Virus record (IMG/VR): IMGVR_UViG_3300031224_000023
Span: 1 to 41,288 of that record
Direction: 5' to 3' (one strand)
Length of the DNA: 41,288 bases
DNA from: a virus
How positions within the stretch are numbered: position 1 is the stretch's first letter; each line of letters opens with the position of its first letter. The translations under genes and the position numbers were made by a program. Below, piece by piece: positions 1 through 41,288 of the stretch. The notes beneath the pieces were generated by a model, which saw nothing but the letters and a program-made list of their open reading frames with translations, did not search any database and was not told the DNA's origin.

Positions 1-2
1 AT

Positions 3-74
3 AATGCAGTAGCATTGCAGCTAGCACATGATGCTCTCGAGGAAAGTTATAACAGAGTGGATGTATCATTATGA
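3..74 (+). CDS. C-terminal fragment of a small hypothetical protein (complete copy at 40893-41114)
   Basis: This is the end of the 73-residue reading frame that begins at 40893 near the right end of the window. It is split here only because the contig is linearised inside it. The last residues are RVDVSL, and its TGA overlaps the ATG of the next gene in an ATGA junction. The function is unknown; see the complete copy for its description. Confidence 0.7.
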   Translation, partial: NAVALQLAHDALEESYNRVDVSL

Positions 75-280
75 AAAAGAAATTAAAAGTGATATGTCGT
101 GGCTCATACGGCTACAACCTGACTGTAGGCGCAACCTATGATGTTGTAGAACTCATTGGGCTATTGATGACTAGAAACTTCACTTTCCCGCGCTATGTCA
201 CAGTGATTGACGACGATGGGAGACGGGCTTCAGCCCACGCTACGAGGTTTGAGCTGGAAAATGGATTATATAAAGACTAA
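71..280 (+). CDS. Small hypothetical protein, long allele
   Basis: A 69-residue basic protein of unknown function whose ATG overlaps the stop of the previous gene. The pattern of an N-terminal beta strand with VICRGSYGYNLTVGATYDV followed by a V-I-D-D-D-G turn resembles small SH3-like beta-barrel proteins that are common in phage early regions; this is only a pattern impression. At the right end of the contig the same gene has lost 157 bp and encodes only 26 residues, so the protein is apparently dispensable in part of the population, or the two ends come from different variants. Confidence 0.65.
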   Translation: MKKKLKVICRGSYGYNLTVGATYDVVELIGLLMTRNFTFPRYVTVIDDDGRRASAHATRFELENGLYKD

Positions 281-304
281 CGTATCAGATACAAAGGACA
301 TTAG

Positions 305-901
305 ATGAGTATGACAATTAATAGAGAAGACTGGCTAACGCGCGCGGCTATGATAGCAAGCGATATGTTGTTTAAACGTGCCGGATACACTGTGCCCAAC
401 AACGTGCGTTACTCGATGTCACTTCCTAGTCGCAATGCAATGAGCGCAAAGCGAACTACAATAGGGCAATGCTGGTCAAGCGTAGCATCGAGCGACGGTA
501 ACATCGAAATATTCATCACGCCCTTAATCGACGATGCCAGAAGCGTCTACGCCACGCTAGTCCACGAGATGGTTCACGCAGTAGTAGGCAATGAGCACGG
601 ACACGACAAGATATTTAAGCGATGCGCTCTAGCCGTGGGGCTGGAAGGCAAGATGACCGCGACGACAATAACAGATGCAGCATGGGATGAAGCAAAACCA
701 ATACTAGAGAAGCGCCTAGGTGCATATCCTCACGGCAAAATGGGAAACCTTAGCAGTAAAAAGAAGCAGACGGCTAGGATGGTAAAGATAGAGTGCGCTT
801 GCGGTTACGGGCCGATAAGAGCAAGCCGTAAAATAATTAACCATGAGGCTGGACTGCCCTTGTGTCCGTCATGCGGCGACTGCATGATGGCAATGTATTA
901 A
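305..901 (+). CDS. SprT-like zinc metalloprotease with C-terminal zinc ribbon
   Basis: A 198-residue protein. The zinc-protease helix motif HEMVH is at residues 87-91, followed by GNEHGHDKIF, which supplies a third histidine ligand (H98 or H100). This spacing is typical of SprT/Spartan-type domains. The C-terminus holds a likely zinc ribbon with cysteines at 164, 166, 187, 190 and 193. Family members in cells cleave proteins crosslinked to DNA; in phages the role is not settled and could be protection of replicating DNA or attack on a host protein. The ATG at 305 has an AAAGGA site 7 bases upstream. A truncated 5' copy recurs at 41188-41288. Confidence 0.88.
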   Translation: MSMTINREDWLTRAAMIASDMLFKRAGYTVPNNVRYSMSLPSRNAMSAKRTTIGQCWSSVASSDGNIEIFITPLIDDARSVYATLVHEMVHAVVGNEHGHDKIFKRCALAVGLEGKMTATTITDAAWDEAKPILEKRLGAYPHGKMGNLSSKKKQTARMVKIECACGYGPIRASRKIINHEAGLPLCPSCGDCMMAMY

Positions 902-4818: not shown

Positions 4819-5267
4819 TGGATATTTTCAAGCCGACTAAAGATCAGATCGAAGACGCACTTTCAGGGGGCATACCCAGATGGGAGAGCGGAACGGAAGT
4901 TCATATGATAGTAACCGACATCGAAGAGAAAGAGCAGGACGATGGCCTACTTCTTATTATCGAATGCGAGGTTCTTAACACCAAGCATAAAGGTAAAAAG
5001 GTTAAGCACTTTATTAGAACATGGAACCCAGCAGCAGCAAGACAATTCTACGACATGGTTCAGGCCTTCGTCGATCAGGATGCAATGGTTTTACTGGGGC
5101 AGTCAGGCGAGCTTAAGACATTCCTTATTGGCAAGTCTTTAGGTGGGCAGACTGATAACTACACCGCAGCAAGCGGCAAGGTTTACACGAACTACAAGAA
5201 CTGGACTGCAATCGAGGGATCTGGCGGATCAGCTCCAGACCTTGATTCTTCCGACATTCCGTTTTAA
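4818..5267 (+). CDS. ssb: Single-stranded DNA-binding protein
   Basis: A 149-residue protein. Residues about 20-110 form alternating beta strands compatible with an OB fold (EVHMIVTDIEEKEQ, LLLIIECEVLNTK, VKHFIRTW). The low-complexity linker GSGGSAPDLDSS leads to the tip SSDIPF. This acidic tail ending in D-I-P-F is the hallmark used by bacterial SSB to recruit exonucleases, helicases and primase. The OB part does not match classical bacterial SSB in detail and looks closer to phage DUF669-like proteins. It is coupled to the upstream gene. Confidence 0.82.
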   Translation: MDIFKPTKDQIEDALSGGIPRWESGTEVHMIVTDIEEKEQDDGLLLIIECEVLNTKHKGKKVKHFIRTWNPAAARQFYDMVQAFVDQDAMVLLGQSGELKTFLIGKSLGGQTDNYTAASGKVYTNYKNWTAIEGSGGSAPDLDSSDIPF

Positions 5268-37119: not shown

Positions 37120-37238
37120 ACTCTGATCCTTCGTCTCTTATTAGAGAGCGTTTCAATTACTTCTTCACACTTAGATTTCCAGTACACGTTTACAGTTATC
37201 AGGTCTTCTATTTCTCTACTCTTTCTTGAACTCAGCAT
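37110..37238 (-). CDS. Hypothetical small basic protein
   Basis: A 42-residue basic protein if started at the ATG at 37238 (MLSSRKSREIEDLITVNVYW); the frame is open to 37328, but a longer form would overlap the upstream gene by over 110 bases. It ends in NKRRRIRVCH. Its stop overlaps the next ATG. The call is tentative. Confidence 0.45.
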   Translation of the reverse strand: MLSSRKSREIEDLITVNVYWKSKCEEVIETLSNKRRRIRVCH

Positions 37239-37929
37239 CAAAGGTCTTGTACTCTCCAGACTCAAGATCCTCTCCTTCACTGTCTCCAACATCTTCTCCG
37301 CGAATTCCTTCTTGCCCATTTGTCTCATTAAGCTGCTCCTCTAGTTCAATAAGTCTGCTATTGACCGCATCCATATCTAGCTCGCCCTTGGTTTTCTTAG
37401 AAGGCTCATTAGTATTAATATTAATTTGTCTTTGTACTGCTGTACCTTTAATACGATCTTCTAGATTCTTAATTACCTGAAGTAGGACTAGAGCTTTTTT
37501 GGGGCAGACCTCTTGATATTCTTCCCACTCTCCGTCAACTTTTCTTTTCTTGGTAGTATTGATATCCATCGAAATAAGATCCTCATAACGCTGAGTAACC
37601 ATATCCAAGGCTGCTTTTGACTTGTCTTCGTATGAATCTAGGGGGCTTGTGATCCACGCCATCTTCGCGGGGTTGCTAATTATGTCTCTATAGAAGTATT
37701 CTTTTGAACAACAGTTATCGTATACGCGCCAGTTGCGCATTCGCTTACCACGTTCTTGAGCCACAAGAAGCTCTTCCCAGAACTTCCGTTTGATCTCGTA
37801 CATCTTAAGGGTAGGCTTTACTCTACCGATAAGCTGATTCTCTGATAACAAGTATAATTCTTGCGGAATTACCTCTATAGCTTCCTTTACCCTGTCACTG
37901 TAGACGGATAAATTCTTTTCCTCATCCAT
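37216..37929 (-). CDS. Putative small terminase subunit
   Basis: A 237-residue protein with an N-terminal helical part that includes PTLKMYEIKRKFWEELLVA, a central helical region and an acidic C-terminus (EGIRGEDVGDSEGEDLESGE). The position before TerL, length and helical N-terminus match TerS-type DNA recognition subunits, which are too divergent to identify by eye. A packaging-associated protein of another kind is the alternative. Confidence 0.5.
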   Translation of the reverse strand: MDEEKNLSVYSDRVKEAIEVIPQELYLLSENQLIGRVKPTLKMYEIKRKFWEELLVAQERGKRMRNWRVYDNCCSKEYFYRDIISNPAKMAWITSPLDSYEDKSKAALDMVTQRYEDLISMDINTTKKRKVDGEWEEYQEVCPKKALVLLQVIKNLEDRIKGTAVQRQININTNEPSKKTKGELDMDAVNSRLIELEEQLNETNGQEGIRGEDVGDSEGEDLESGEYKTFDAEFKKE

Positions 37930-40015: not shown

Positions 40016-40123
40016 TGGAAGGGACGGACAGGACTTGAACCTGCAACCTTCCCGCAACGAATCCTGTCGATTTTACTGACTAAAGACTCCAGCAAGCTGC
40101 TCTACCGTTGAGCTTCCGACCCC
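40016..40123 (-). tRNA. Atypical tRNA-like gene with very long anticodon-variable region
   Basis: On the minus strand an 8-bp acceptor stem (GGGGTCGG with CCGTCCCT; first pair G-U, one T-T mismatch), a discriminator T and an encoded CCA (40018-40016) can be drawn. The D arm is GCTC-AACGGTA-GAGC (40113-40099), and the T arm is GCAGG-TTCAAGT-CCTGT (40044-40028). Between D and T arms lie 54 bases, against ~23 in normal tRNAs and ~30-40 in long-arm types. The best central hairpin is TTGCTGG-AGTCTTTAG-TCAGTAA; if G32-A38 is the loop, the anticodon would be CTT, but with an unusual base 37. An 8-bp acceptor and this T arm recall tRNA-Sec; the TCA anticodon is absent. The identity is left open. Confidence 0.6.
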
Positions 40124-40365
40124 ATTGATAGCTGCAGAATACCGCAAATGGAGGGGAGGTGTCTAGGTTTTGCTAGTAGTTTTTTTCGGGGAGGATTCTC
40201 GGGAAGGGTTGGCAGATCGGAGGGATTTTTTGGGGTGGGTGTGTGGCGGACATTACATTGGGCATATAGTATCTAGACCCCCAGCCCCCCCCTCCGTTTC
40301 CAGCCTGTCACATTGCGGACTGCGTGAAGCAAGTGCACCTCGGTATCGTACAATCCCCCGCGTTG

Positions 40366-40393
40366 TATAATCTCCGCACCTATAATCTCCGCA
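40366..40393. repeat. Two direct copies of a 13-mer
   Basis: TATAATCTCCGCA occurs at 40366-40378 and 40381-40393, separated by two bases. Each starts with a perfect TATAAT box, but no -35 element stands at the right distance. They may be iterons or paired binding sites. Confidence 0.7.
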
Positions 40394-40537
40394 GTTATAC
40401 ATAAGCTAGATTAGGCAGCGCGTCCGCTTAAGCATTGAGTCATGTGCATCGTGTCATACCGCACCGTTCCTACTGCGTATGGTCGTGGGGGAGAGGGAGG
40501 TAGTCGGTGGACGCTCACCTGTAATATACGAACCTAC

Positions 40538-40565
40538 CATATCCGCCATATCCGCCATCTCCCGC
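40538..40565. repeat. Three tandem 9-mers
   Basis: CATATCCGC is repeated at 40538-40546 and 40547-40555, followed by a degenerate third unit (CATCTCCCGC) at 40556-40565. The spacing is close to a helical turn. The pattern is like iterons of a replication origin or cooperative binding sites. Confidence 0.7.
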
Positions 40566-40625
40566 CTCACCGCATCAACCCTTAGCAAAACAGGAACGCC
40601 GCAACACCCCTTGATCTCCCCTTTA

Positions 40626-40640
40626 TGCAAGTCACTTGCA
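40626..40640. promoter_or_regulatory. Palindromic operator-like site 1
   Basis: TGCAAGT-C-ACTTGCA is a perfect inverted repeat of 7-base halves around a single base. It shares 11 of 15 positions with site 2 (40687-40701), giving the consensus TGCAAGYCWSTTGCA. It is about 80 bases upstream of the first rightward promoter. Confidence 0.6.
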
Positions 40641-40686
40641 ACAACCCTCATGTGCAGTAACAGCGCCCCGCCTTGACATTCCACAT

Positions 40687-40701
40687 TGCAAGCCTGTTGC
40701 A
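40687..40701. promoter_or_regulatory. Palindromic operator-like site 2
   Basis: TGCAAG-CCT-GTTGCA is an inverted repeat with one mismatch that matches site 1. The centre lies 61 bases (about six helical turns) from the centre of site 1 and 17 bases upstream of the -35 box at 40718. A dimeric regulator could bind both sites and loop the DNA. Confidence 0.55.
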
Positions 40702-40717
40702 TAATGAAATTGCGCAC

Positions 40718-40745
40718 TTGACCTATACATAGCAAAACCTTTAAT
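40718..40745 (+). promoter_or_regulatory. Rightward sigma70-like promoter P1
   Basis: TTGACC (40718-40723) and TTTAAT (40740-40745) are separated by 16 bases. Each box has five of six consensus bases. It would produce a leader of about 140 bases before the first rightward gene. Confidence 0.6.
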
Positions 40746-40821
40746 GGTATTCGCGCGCCCGCTCCCTAGGTAAACTTCTCACCATAGACAATAATAAATC
40801 GAATAAAAGTTATAATAAAAC

Positions 40822-40850
40822 TTGCCATAGCATTACGTTCGACGTAGATT
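40822..40850 (+). promoter_or_regulatory. Rightward sigma70-like promoter P2
   Basis: TTGCCA (40822-40827) and TAGATT (40845-40850) have a 17-base spacer and an AT-rich upstream tract (40790-40820) like an UP element. The start would be near 40857, with a short leader to the ATG at 40893. Confidence 0.65.
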
Positions 40851-40892
40851 ACCTTTATCGAATCAAACGCAGCAAACAAAGAGAGATGCTAA

Positions 40893-41114
40893 ATGGAAAC
40901 TGAAGAAACAAAATCAAGGCGCAAAGTGTTAAAGATTCTCATCAATATGATTGAGGCGGAGAAGAAAGAGACTGTTGAATGGAGCAGCGAGTTAGTCTGT
41001 GTGGGATTCAGTTCTCCCTCGGCAGCAACTCTCCACGCCAATAATGCAGTAGCATTGCAGCTAGCACATGATGCTCTCGAGGAAAGTTATAACAGAGTGG
41101 ATGTATCATTATGA
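40893..41114 (+). CDS. First rightward gene, hypothetical protein
   Basis: A 73-residue protein, complete here and continued as a fragment at 3-74 in the other copy. It has a basic N-terminal helix (METEETKSRRKVLKILINMI) and an Ala-rich helix (ANNAVALQLAHDALEESYN). An AAAGAGAG site stands before the ATG. The first gene after the early promoters is often a host-takeover protein; no motif supports that here. Confidence 0.7.
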   Translation: METEETKSRRKVLKILINMIEAEKKETVEWSSELVCVGFSSPSAATLHANNAVALQLAHDALEESYNRVDVSL

Positions 41115-41191
41115 AAAAGAAATTAAAAGTGATATGTCGTGGCTCATACGGCTACAACCTAAACGTATCAGATACAAAGGACATTAGATGA
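41111..41191 (+). CDS. Truncated allele of the second rightward gene (26 residues)
   Basis: Because of the 157-bp deletion, the frame of the 69-residue gene continues for only 26 residues (MKKKLKVICRGSYGYNL then NVSDTKDIR). Its TGA now overlaps the ATG of the SprT-like gene, so the three genes are joined by two ATGA overlaps. It may be non-functional, or a working minimal peptide; the first is more likely. Confidence 0.6.
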   Translation: MKKKLKVICRGSYGYNLNVSDTKDIR

Positions 41192-41288
41192 GTATGACAA
41201 TTAATAGAGAAGACTGGCTAACGCGCGCGGCTATGATAGCAAGCGATATGTTGTTTAAACGTGCCGGATACACTGTGCCCAACAACGT
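41188..41288 (+). CDS. 5' fragment of the SprT-like gene (window end)
   Basis: The first 33 codons of the gene that is complete at 305-901, identical in sequence. It is cut only by the end of the contig. Confidence 0.85.
   Translation, partial: MSMTINREDWLTRAAMIASDMLFKRAGYTVPNN

What the first reader, a model, noticed from the sequence alone, without database searches (positions are those of the whole stretch)
40016..40123. Atypical tRNA-like gene with 54 bases between D and T arms
Acceptor, D and T arms and an encoded CCA are clear, yet the central region is far too long for class I tRNA and longer than normal long-arm tRNA. The 8-bp acceptor and the T arm recall tRNA-Sec, but the anticodon is not TCA. 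It may be a new type of phage tRNA (such as unusual allo-tRNAs), an intron-containing gene or a tRNA-shaped RNA with another use, such as a packaging or replication signal.
Basis: partly seen in the sequence, partly recalled or inferred. Interest (0 to 1): 0.6.

Follow-up and report, generated by a model that had tools for sequence, protein, structure and literature searches.

The report
Phage tRNA-like RNA without anticodon loop
A virus of bacteria carries a gene for an RNA built like a transfer RNA except that the arm that reads the genetic code is replaced by a long irregular arm; similar misfit tRNA genes turn out to be common in phages, so this is probably a tRNA look-alike with another job, or a tRNA with an insert or in decay.

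Summary
On the minus strand, 40123-40016, lies a tRNA-like gene with acceptor, D and T arms and a 54-nt stretch where 25-28 nt are usual. Rfam's tRNA model scores it 38.5 bits (cut-off 29). Zero of 1.2 Mb of shuffled relatives' DNA scored as high in my arm-based scan. No reading gives a good anticodon arm: allowing one excised insert, it scores no better than shuffles (p = 0.24). The most natural fold is a 5-bp stem closing a 36-nt loop. It is not tRNA-Sec or a normal long-arm tRNA. No homologue was found, so there is no covariation for this element itself. The context is informative. Over-long tRNA genes are common in IMG/VR phages. Of 90 examined, 39 become proper tRNAs if one insert is removed (2% of shuffles do), including a covarying family also present in cultured T4-like phages; 39 others, among them the window's, do not. 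In the window's own podovirus clade other tRNA-like genes lack a proper anticodon loop, including a small covarying family upstream of terminase, where the window's element also lies. Best reading: a tRNA-shaped, non-decoding RNA (0.45). A decaying tRNA (0.27) and an intron-bearing tRNA (0.22) remain open.

The parts
40016..40123 (-). tRNA-like gene, whole (108 nt incl. CCA)
   Evidence: RF00005 38.5 bits; arm scan score 42, none >=34 in shuffles
40116..40123 (-). acceptor stem, 5' strand GGGGTCGG
   Evidence: pairs with 40020-40027 (CCGTCCCT): 7 of 8 pairs incl. one terminal G-U; one U-U mismatch
40114..40115 (-). positions 8-9, AA (U8 replaced by A)
   Evidence: read from sequence; 88 of 90 over-long phage tRNA-like genes have T8, only the window and L150 have A8
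40099..40113 (-). D arm GCTC-AACGGTA-GAGC
   Evidence: 4-bp stem, A14, G18G19, A21 present
40092..40096 (-). 5' strand of the stem that closes the central domain, CTTGC
   Evidence: pairs with GCGGG 40051-40055 (2 G-U); minimum-energy fold
40056..40091 (-). 36-nt insert-like loop TGGAGTCTTTAGTCAGTAAAATCGACAGGATTCGTT in place of a 7-nt anticodon loop; inner stem GAGTCTT/AGGATTC predicted
   Evidence: fold; stability not significant alone, z = -1.1, p = 0.14; no good anticodon arm by the split model, p = 0.24
40051..40055 (-). 3' strand of the central stem, GCGGG
40045..40050 (-). short variable region AAGGTT
   Evidence: read from sequence
40028..40044 (-). T arm GCAGG-TTCAAGT-CCTGT
   Evidence: 5-bp stem with a standard T loop
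40020..40027 (-). acceptor stem, 3' strand CCGTCCCT
40016..40019 (-). discriminator U and encoded CCA
   Evidence: TCCA read directly
40136..40165 (-). promoter-like TAGACA-18-TATTCT just upstream
   Evidence: 9 of 12 consensus match; not evidence of function

Best explanation
A phage-encoded tRNA-like RNA that is not used for decoding. Shown from sequence: acceptor, D and T arms and CCA are kept, and the anticodon arm is replaced by a longer arm without a 7-nt anticodon loop. Inferred: it is transcribed from its own promoter at the head of the leftward (packaging/structural) gene block, trimmed by host RNase P and 3' processing like a tRNA (RNase P reads mainly the acceptor and T arms), and persists as a stable L-shaped RNA. 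Its likely job is to engage host factors that recognise the tRNA elbow or acceptor (decoy or competitor), or to mark the transcript for RNase P cleavage. Which of these two is not decided by any evidence here.
For: Acceptor/D/T domain far beyond chance. No anticodon arm can be read, even allowing one excised insert: best candidate GCTTG-CTGGAGG-CGGGA has 4 of 5 pairs, p = 0.24. In relatives sharing the portal protein, other tRNA-like genes also lack a proper anticodon loop: G042 (TCCTG-GACG-CAGGA tetraloop), G037 (CCC-GGCA-GGG), G062 (13-nt loop). A family of four elements (L208, L230, L232, L234) has a covarying 4-bp stem and an invariant core CCGAAACKGGT. In the three of these where terminase and portal could be located, the element lies on their strand, 2.7-5 kb upstream of terminase, as the window's lies 3.2 kb upstream. 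The same A8 + D-arm sequence with an over-long middle occurs in only two other IMG/VR loci, L150 and L240; both have a GAAA-capped hairpin and no anticodon loop.
Against: No homologue of this element, hence no covariation. The middle folds only marginally better than shuffles (z = -1.1). The U-U mismatch and A8 could be signs of decay. L150 and L240 were found by a pattern that already demanded A8 and the D arm, and their phages are not visibly related to this one. No transcript data.
Confidence: 0.45

Rival explanations
1. A decaying (pseudo-)tRNA: a phage tRNA whose anticodon arm was disrupted by an insertion and which is drifting.
For: U-U mismatch in the acceptor, A8, marginal fold of the middle, ARAGORN default negative, no conserved homologue. 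Automatic annotation calls a comparable gene in Aeromonas phage Ahp1 'tRNA-Pseudo'.
Against: D and T arms, T-loop and nearly all conserved D-arm bases, and CCA are intact; drift should hit these equally. Phage genomes lose useless DNA fast (general knowledge). Comparable over-long genes have perfect acceptor stems and, in families, covariation.
Confidence: 0.27
2. A functional tRNA whose anticodon loop carries a short intron-like insert that is removed after transcription, e.g. tRNA-Ser(GGA) with a 31-nt insert after position 37 (or tRNA-Arg(UCG) with the insert at the 5' side of the loop).
For: 39 of 90 over-long phage tRNA-like genes give a proper anticodon arm after removal of one insert, against 2.4% of shuffles. 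One family, split at 28-30 of the anticodon stem, shows strong covariation of both the split stem and the insert's hairpin and occurs in Vibrio phage nt-1 and Synechococcus phage B23. ARAGORN with introns allowed proposes tRNA-Ser(GGA) here.
Against: The window scores 19, reached by 24% of its own shuffles. With the family model it scores 51 bits, like an ordinary tRNA in the same searches, while members score about 77-118; many pairs of the insert hairpin are broken. No RNA ligase, RtcB or tRNA endonuclease found among the proteins searched. A Ser tRNA would need a long variable arm.
Confidence: 0.22
3. A decoding tRNA of an unusual type (Sec-like or allo-tRNA) that works unspliced.
For: 8-bp acceptor plus 5-bp T stem recalls bacterial tRNA-Sec; irregular tRNA sequences were reported from soil metatranscriptomes (PMC7609411).
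Against: No 7-nt anticodon loop; D stem 4 bp; short variable region; the ordinary tRNA model is the best match.
Confidence: 0.04
4. A tRNA-shaped cis element in the genome, such as an integration site or a packaging or replication signal.
For: Lies in a ~0.8-kb non-coding region between divergent gene blocks.
Against: No integrase found; the whole tRNA body including D arm is present, not only a 3' half as at att sites; nothing indicates a DNA-level role.
Confidence: 0.02

Closest known systems
Phage-encoded tRNAs (Rfam RF00005)
   Same: acceptor, D and T arms, CCA; scores above the curated cut-off
   Different: no anticodon stem-loop of 5 bp + 7 nt; 54 nt instead of ~25 between the arms; A8
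RNAC and RNAD of phage T4 (small RNAs from the T4 tRNA region, role unknown; PMC3014915)
   Same: phage small RNA of unknown role, associated with phage tRNA genes
   Different: not compared by sequence here; the window has a single, isolated element
allo-tRNAs and other irregular tRNAs (Mukai et al. 2017, as reviewed in PMC7609411)
   Same: irregular cloverleaf from environmental sequence, some not chargeable in E. coli
   Different: those have 8/4 or 9/3 acceptor/T arms and keep an anticodon loop; here the acceptor/T is 8/5 and the anticodon arm is what is altered
tRNA-Undet / tRNA-Pseudo entries of T4-like phages (Synechococcus phage B23, Aeromonas phage Ahp1)
   Same: over-long phage tRNA genes that annotation programs cannot assign
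   Different: those carry a conserved hairpin insert that splits the anticodon stem and yield a sensible anticodon when it is removed; the window's does not
CCGAAACKGGT tRNA-like family of related podoviruses (L208, L230, L232, L234; described here)
   Same: tRNA body, no ordinary anticodon loop; same phage clade and same position upstream of terminase where this could be checked
   Different: normal total length; invariant 11-nt core absent from the window's element

Membership tests
tRNA (RF00005) | acceptor, D and T arms scoring above the gathering threshold | tested here: met
   38.5 bits, cut-off 29
tRNA (RF00005) | anticodon arm of 5 bp and 7-nt loop with U33 | tested here: not met
   none in sequence; split model p = 0.24
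tRNA (RF00005) | U8, pairing with A14 | tested here: not met
   position 8 is A
tRNA-Sec (RF01852) | 6-bp D stem, long variable arm, UCA anticodon | tested here: not met
   4-bp D stem, 6-nt variable region, no anticodon loop; the ordinary tRNA model is the best match of its clan
class II tRNA (Leu/Ser/Tyr) | normal anticodon arm followed by a paired variable arm | tested here: not met
   no anticodon arm adjacent to the D stem
tRNA with split-anticodon insert (class B, described here) | 5' anticodon strand split at 28-30 by a ~40-46-nt insert with a covarying hairpin; proper anticodon after removal | tested here: not met
   R1 score 51 bits, as ordinary tRNAs, against about 77-118 for members; hairpin pairs broken
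intron-containing tRNA | removal of one insert restores a 5-bp/7-nt anticodon arm | tested here: inconclusive
   4 of 5 pairs, no better than shuffles
intron-containing tRNA | spliced RNA product | not testable with these tools
   needs RNA data
CCGAAACKGGT tRNA-like family (described here) | invariant 11-nt core in a 4-bp stem | tested here: not met
   motif absent from the window's element
allo-tRNA | 8/4 or 9/3 acceptor/T arms with an anticodon loop | tested here: not met
   8/5 arms and no anticodon loop
tmRNA | tag-peptide frame, pseudoknots, reduced D arm without a stem | tested here: not met
   paired D arm, only 108 nt, no tmRNA hit

The most novel reading that the evidence does not exclude
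Phages encode a broad, largely undescribed set of tRNA-shaped RNAs whose anticodon domain has been replaced by other structures. They are matured by the host tRNA machinery but do not decode, and serve as tRNA mimics in the phage-host conflict. The window's element is one of them.
Probability: 0.3. Interest if true: 0.75.

Novelty: new variant of a known kind. Interest (0 to 1): 0.45.

Why it matters
Phage tRNA counts and codon-compensation studies rely on programs that skip such genes or label them undetermined or pseudo. If they are tRNA mimics, they are a new tool by which phages act on host tRNA biology, for example on tRNA-cutting defences. If they carry removable inserts, as one covarying family in cultured T4-like phages suggests, phages have small tRNA introns of a type I could not find described in the papers searched. 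Both can be tested in phages that can be grown, such as Vibrio phage nt-1.

Tried and rejected
A direct search for the element with its own flanks: none in viral contigs, none among isolate phages. Orthologues at the same place in the nearest relatives: none scored. No relative of a neighbouring protein (37216-37929) found. The portal has no relative among isolate phages; its only genome-collection hits are two MAG contigs labelled Bdellovibrionales and Acidobacteria, so the host is unknown. A tRNA-Ser(GGA) with a 12-nt intron, proposed by ARAGORN in intron mode, was not accepted: its anticodon stem has two mismatches, and in a looser run the same program reports 327 'genes' in the window. Membership in the split-anticodon family: rejected. 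Stability of the middle as proof of structure: not significant. Integration site: no integrase found among the proteins searched. BLAST with the L150 element led only to ordinary tRNA pieces and two plasmid tRNAs. A search of bacterial genomes by pattern failed for lack of a valid centre and was not repeated.

Full report
WHAT IS THERE. The window is an IMG/VR virus record of 41,288 bases with a P22-like portal, a terminase and a leftward structural block. Its ends repeat: 1-120 equals 41041-41160 and 279-405 equals 41162-41288, so the genome is close to complete. On the minus strand, 40123-40016, a tRNA-like gene sits near the head of the leftward block. Acceptor, D and T arms are clear, and the central stretch is 54 nt. 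Rfam's tRNA model matches with 38.5 bits, above its cut-off of 29. A scan for T arm + acceptor + D arm gave it 42 points; no shuffled sequence (1.24 Mb, both strands) reached 34.

THE CENTRAL DOMAIN. No 5-bp/7-nt anticodon arm is present. The minimum-energy fold closes the domain with CTTGC/GCGGG and puts an irregular stem GAGTCTT/AGGATTC inside a 36-nt loop. Alone this is not more stable than shuffles (z = -1.1, p = 0.14). If one insert is allowed anywhere in the anticodon arm, the best reading is GCTTG-CTGGAG|31 nt|G-CGGGA, anticodon GGA, with 4 of 5 pairs; 24% of shuffles do as well. Further departures from a working tRNA are A at position 8 and a U-U mismatch in the acceptor.

RELATIVES. 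Portal-based searches brought in about 90 related contigs and two MAG contigs labelled Bdellovibrionales and Acidobacteria. None has a recognisable orthologue of the element. Of 80 records searched with the tRNA model, 8 had a match over Rfam's cut-off, and several of those genes are odd: arms with tetraloops (G042, G037), a 13-nt loop (G062) and, in three phages (G059, G064, G077), an invariant CCGAAACKGGT core. A pattern search found a fourth member, L232. In four aligned members the stem below the core changes on both sides while staying paired. In the three members where terminase and portal could be located, the gene lies on their strand upstream of terminase, as in the window; for L232 this was not established.

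THE WIDER SET. In the first table of 83 matches, 61 had perfect 7-bp acceptors, so over-long tRNA-like genes are common in phages. Of 90 distinct elements passing acceptor and T-arm filters, 12 have an intact anticodon arm (mostly Ile-UAU-like with a paired variable arm), 39 give a proper arm after removal of one insert (2.4% of shuffles do), and 39, including the window's, fit neither. The 39 split ones include a family whose 5' anticodon strand is cut at 28-30 by a ~40-46-nt insert with a hairpin and usually ACAGCAA. In 19 sequences, 96% of pair cells are paired against 66% in shuffles, and 22 of 28 pairs, those of the split stem and of the insert hairpin among them, show changes on both sides. 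Members occur in Vibrio phage nt-1 (unannotated), Synechococcus phage B23 (tRNA-Undet), Synechococcus phage BUCT-ZZ01 (unannotated) and Aeromonas phage Ahp1 (tRNA-Pseudo). With the family's model (R1) the window scores 51 bits, like ordinary tRNAs in the same searches, while members score about 77-118, so it is not a member.

CLOSEST LOOK-ALIKES. Requiring A8 and the exact D arm with an over-long middle, only L150 and L240 match in all viral contigs. Both have a stem, a small internal loop and a hairpin capped by GAAA, without an anticodon loop. They resemble the window in layout, but the shared A8 and D arm were part of the search pattern, and their phages show no detectable protein relation.

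MECHANISM. Shown: a tRNA body without a decoding end. Inferred: transcription from the promoter-like site 40165-40136, maturation by RNase P, and a role as a tRNA mimic or as a processing mark. Against: no homologue, no RNA data, two small defects. I give 0.45 to a non-decoding tRNA-like RNA, 0.27 to decay, 0.22 to an insert-bearing tRNA, and little to the rest.

LITERATURE. Searches of open papers found no description of phage tRNA-like RNAs without an anticodon loop or of short inserts in the anticodon arms of phage tRNAs. The nearest are T4's RNAC/RNAD of unknown role (PMC3014915) and irregular tRNAs from soil metatranscriptomes (PMC7609411). Absence from these searches is not proof of novelty.

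Noticed in passing
L122:4649-4768 and 4862-4980; L046:10535-10651; L114:5-124; L040:1175-1293 (-); L140:1461-1582; L236 (Vibrio phage nt-1) 1495-1610; L237 (Synechococcus phage B23) 1194-1306; L238 (Aeromonas phage Ahp1) 1195-1311: Phage tRNAs whose 5' anticodon strand is split at 28-30 by a ~40-46-nt insert with a covarying hairpin and usually ACAGCAA; removal restores a perfect anticodon arm with U33 and sensible anticodons. Looks like an undescribed small intron or insert family.
   Followed up: partly
L208:696-774; L230:10421-10497 (-); L234:10897-10973 (-); L232:1431-1509 (-): tRNA-like family with invariant CCGAAACKGGT core and covarying stem; three of the four lie upstream of terminase in podoviruses related to the window.
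   Followed up: yes
L198, L234, L232 and L208 around their tRNA-like genes: GCATCCTTTGC(GC) repeats: 7 copies in L198/L234, 3 in L232, 2 in L208, some flanking the tRNA-like gene; not present in the window.
   Followed up: no
L053, L063, L065, L087, L089, L097, L100, L104, L109 and others: Ile(UAU)-like phage tRNAs with a long variable arm whose loop reads CAGATTA/AGATNR.
   Followed up: no
L037 around 1383-1625 (record G028): tmRNA-like or permuted-tmRNA-like element in a podovirus relative, below both Rfam cut-offs.
   Followed up: no
L241 (Shinella plasmid NZ_CP086614.1) about 600-680; L242 (Agrobacterium plasmid CP039918.1) about 600-680: Unannotated tRNAs with an 8-nt anticodon loop (TTTCCTAC / ATTCCTAC) on two rhizobial plasmids, possibly CUA or four-base readers.
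   Followed up: no
L038, L067, L129, L155: Over-long phage tRNA-like genes sharing a TCA(T/A)GGTGAAGGnCC..AAA.GC core in the central domain.
   Followed up: no
window 1-405 and 41041-41288: End repeat interrupted by a 158-base indel: the record is a nearly complete circularising genome with a strain variant at the join.
   Followed up: partly
window 40124-40890: About 0.8 kb of non-coding DNA with runs of C and G between the divergent gene blocks.
   Followed up: no
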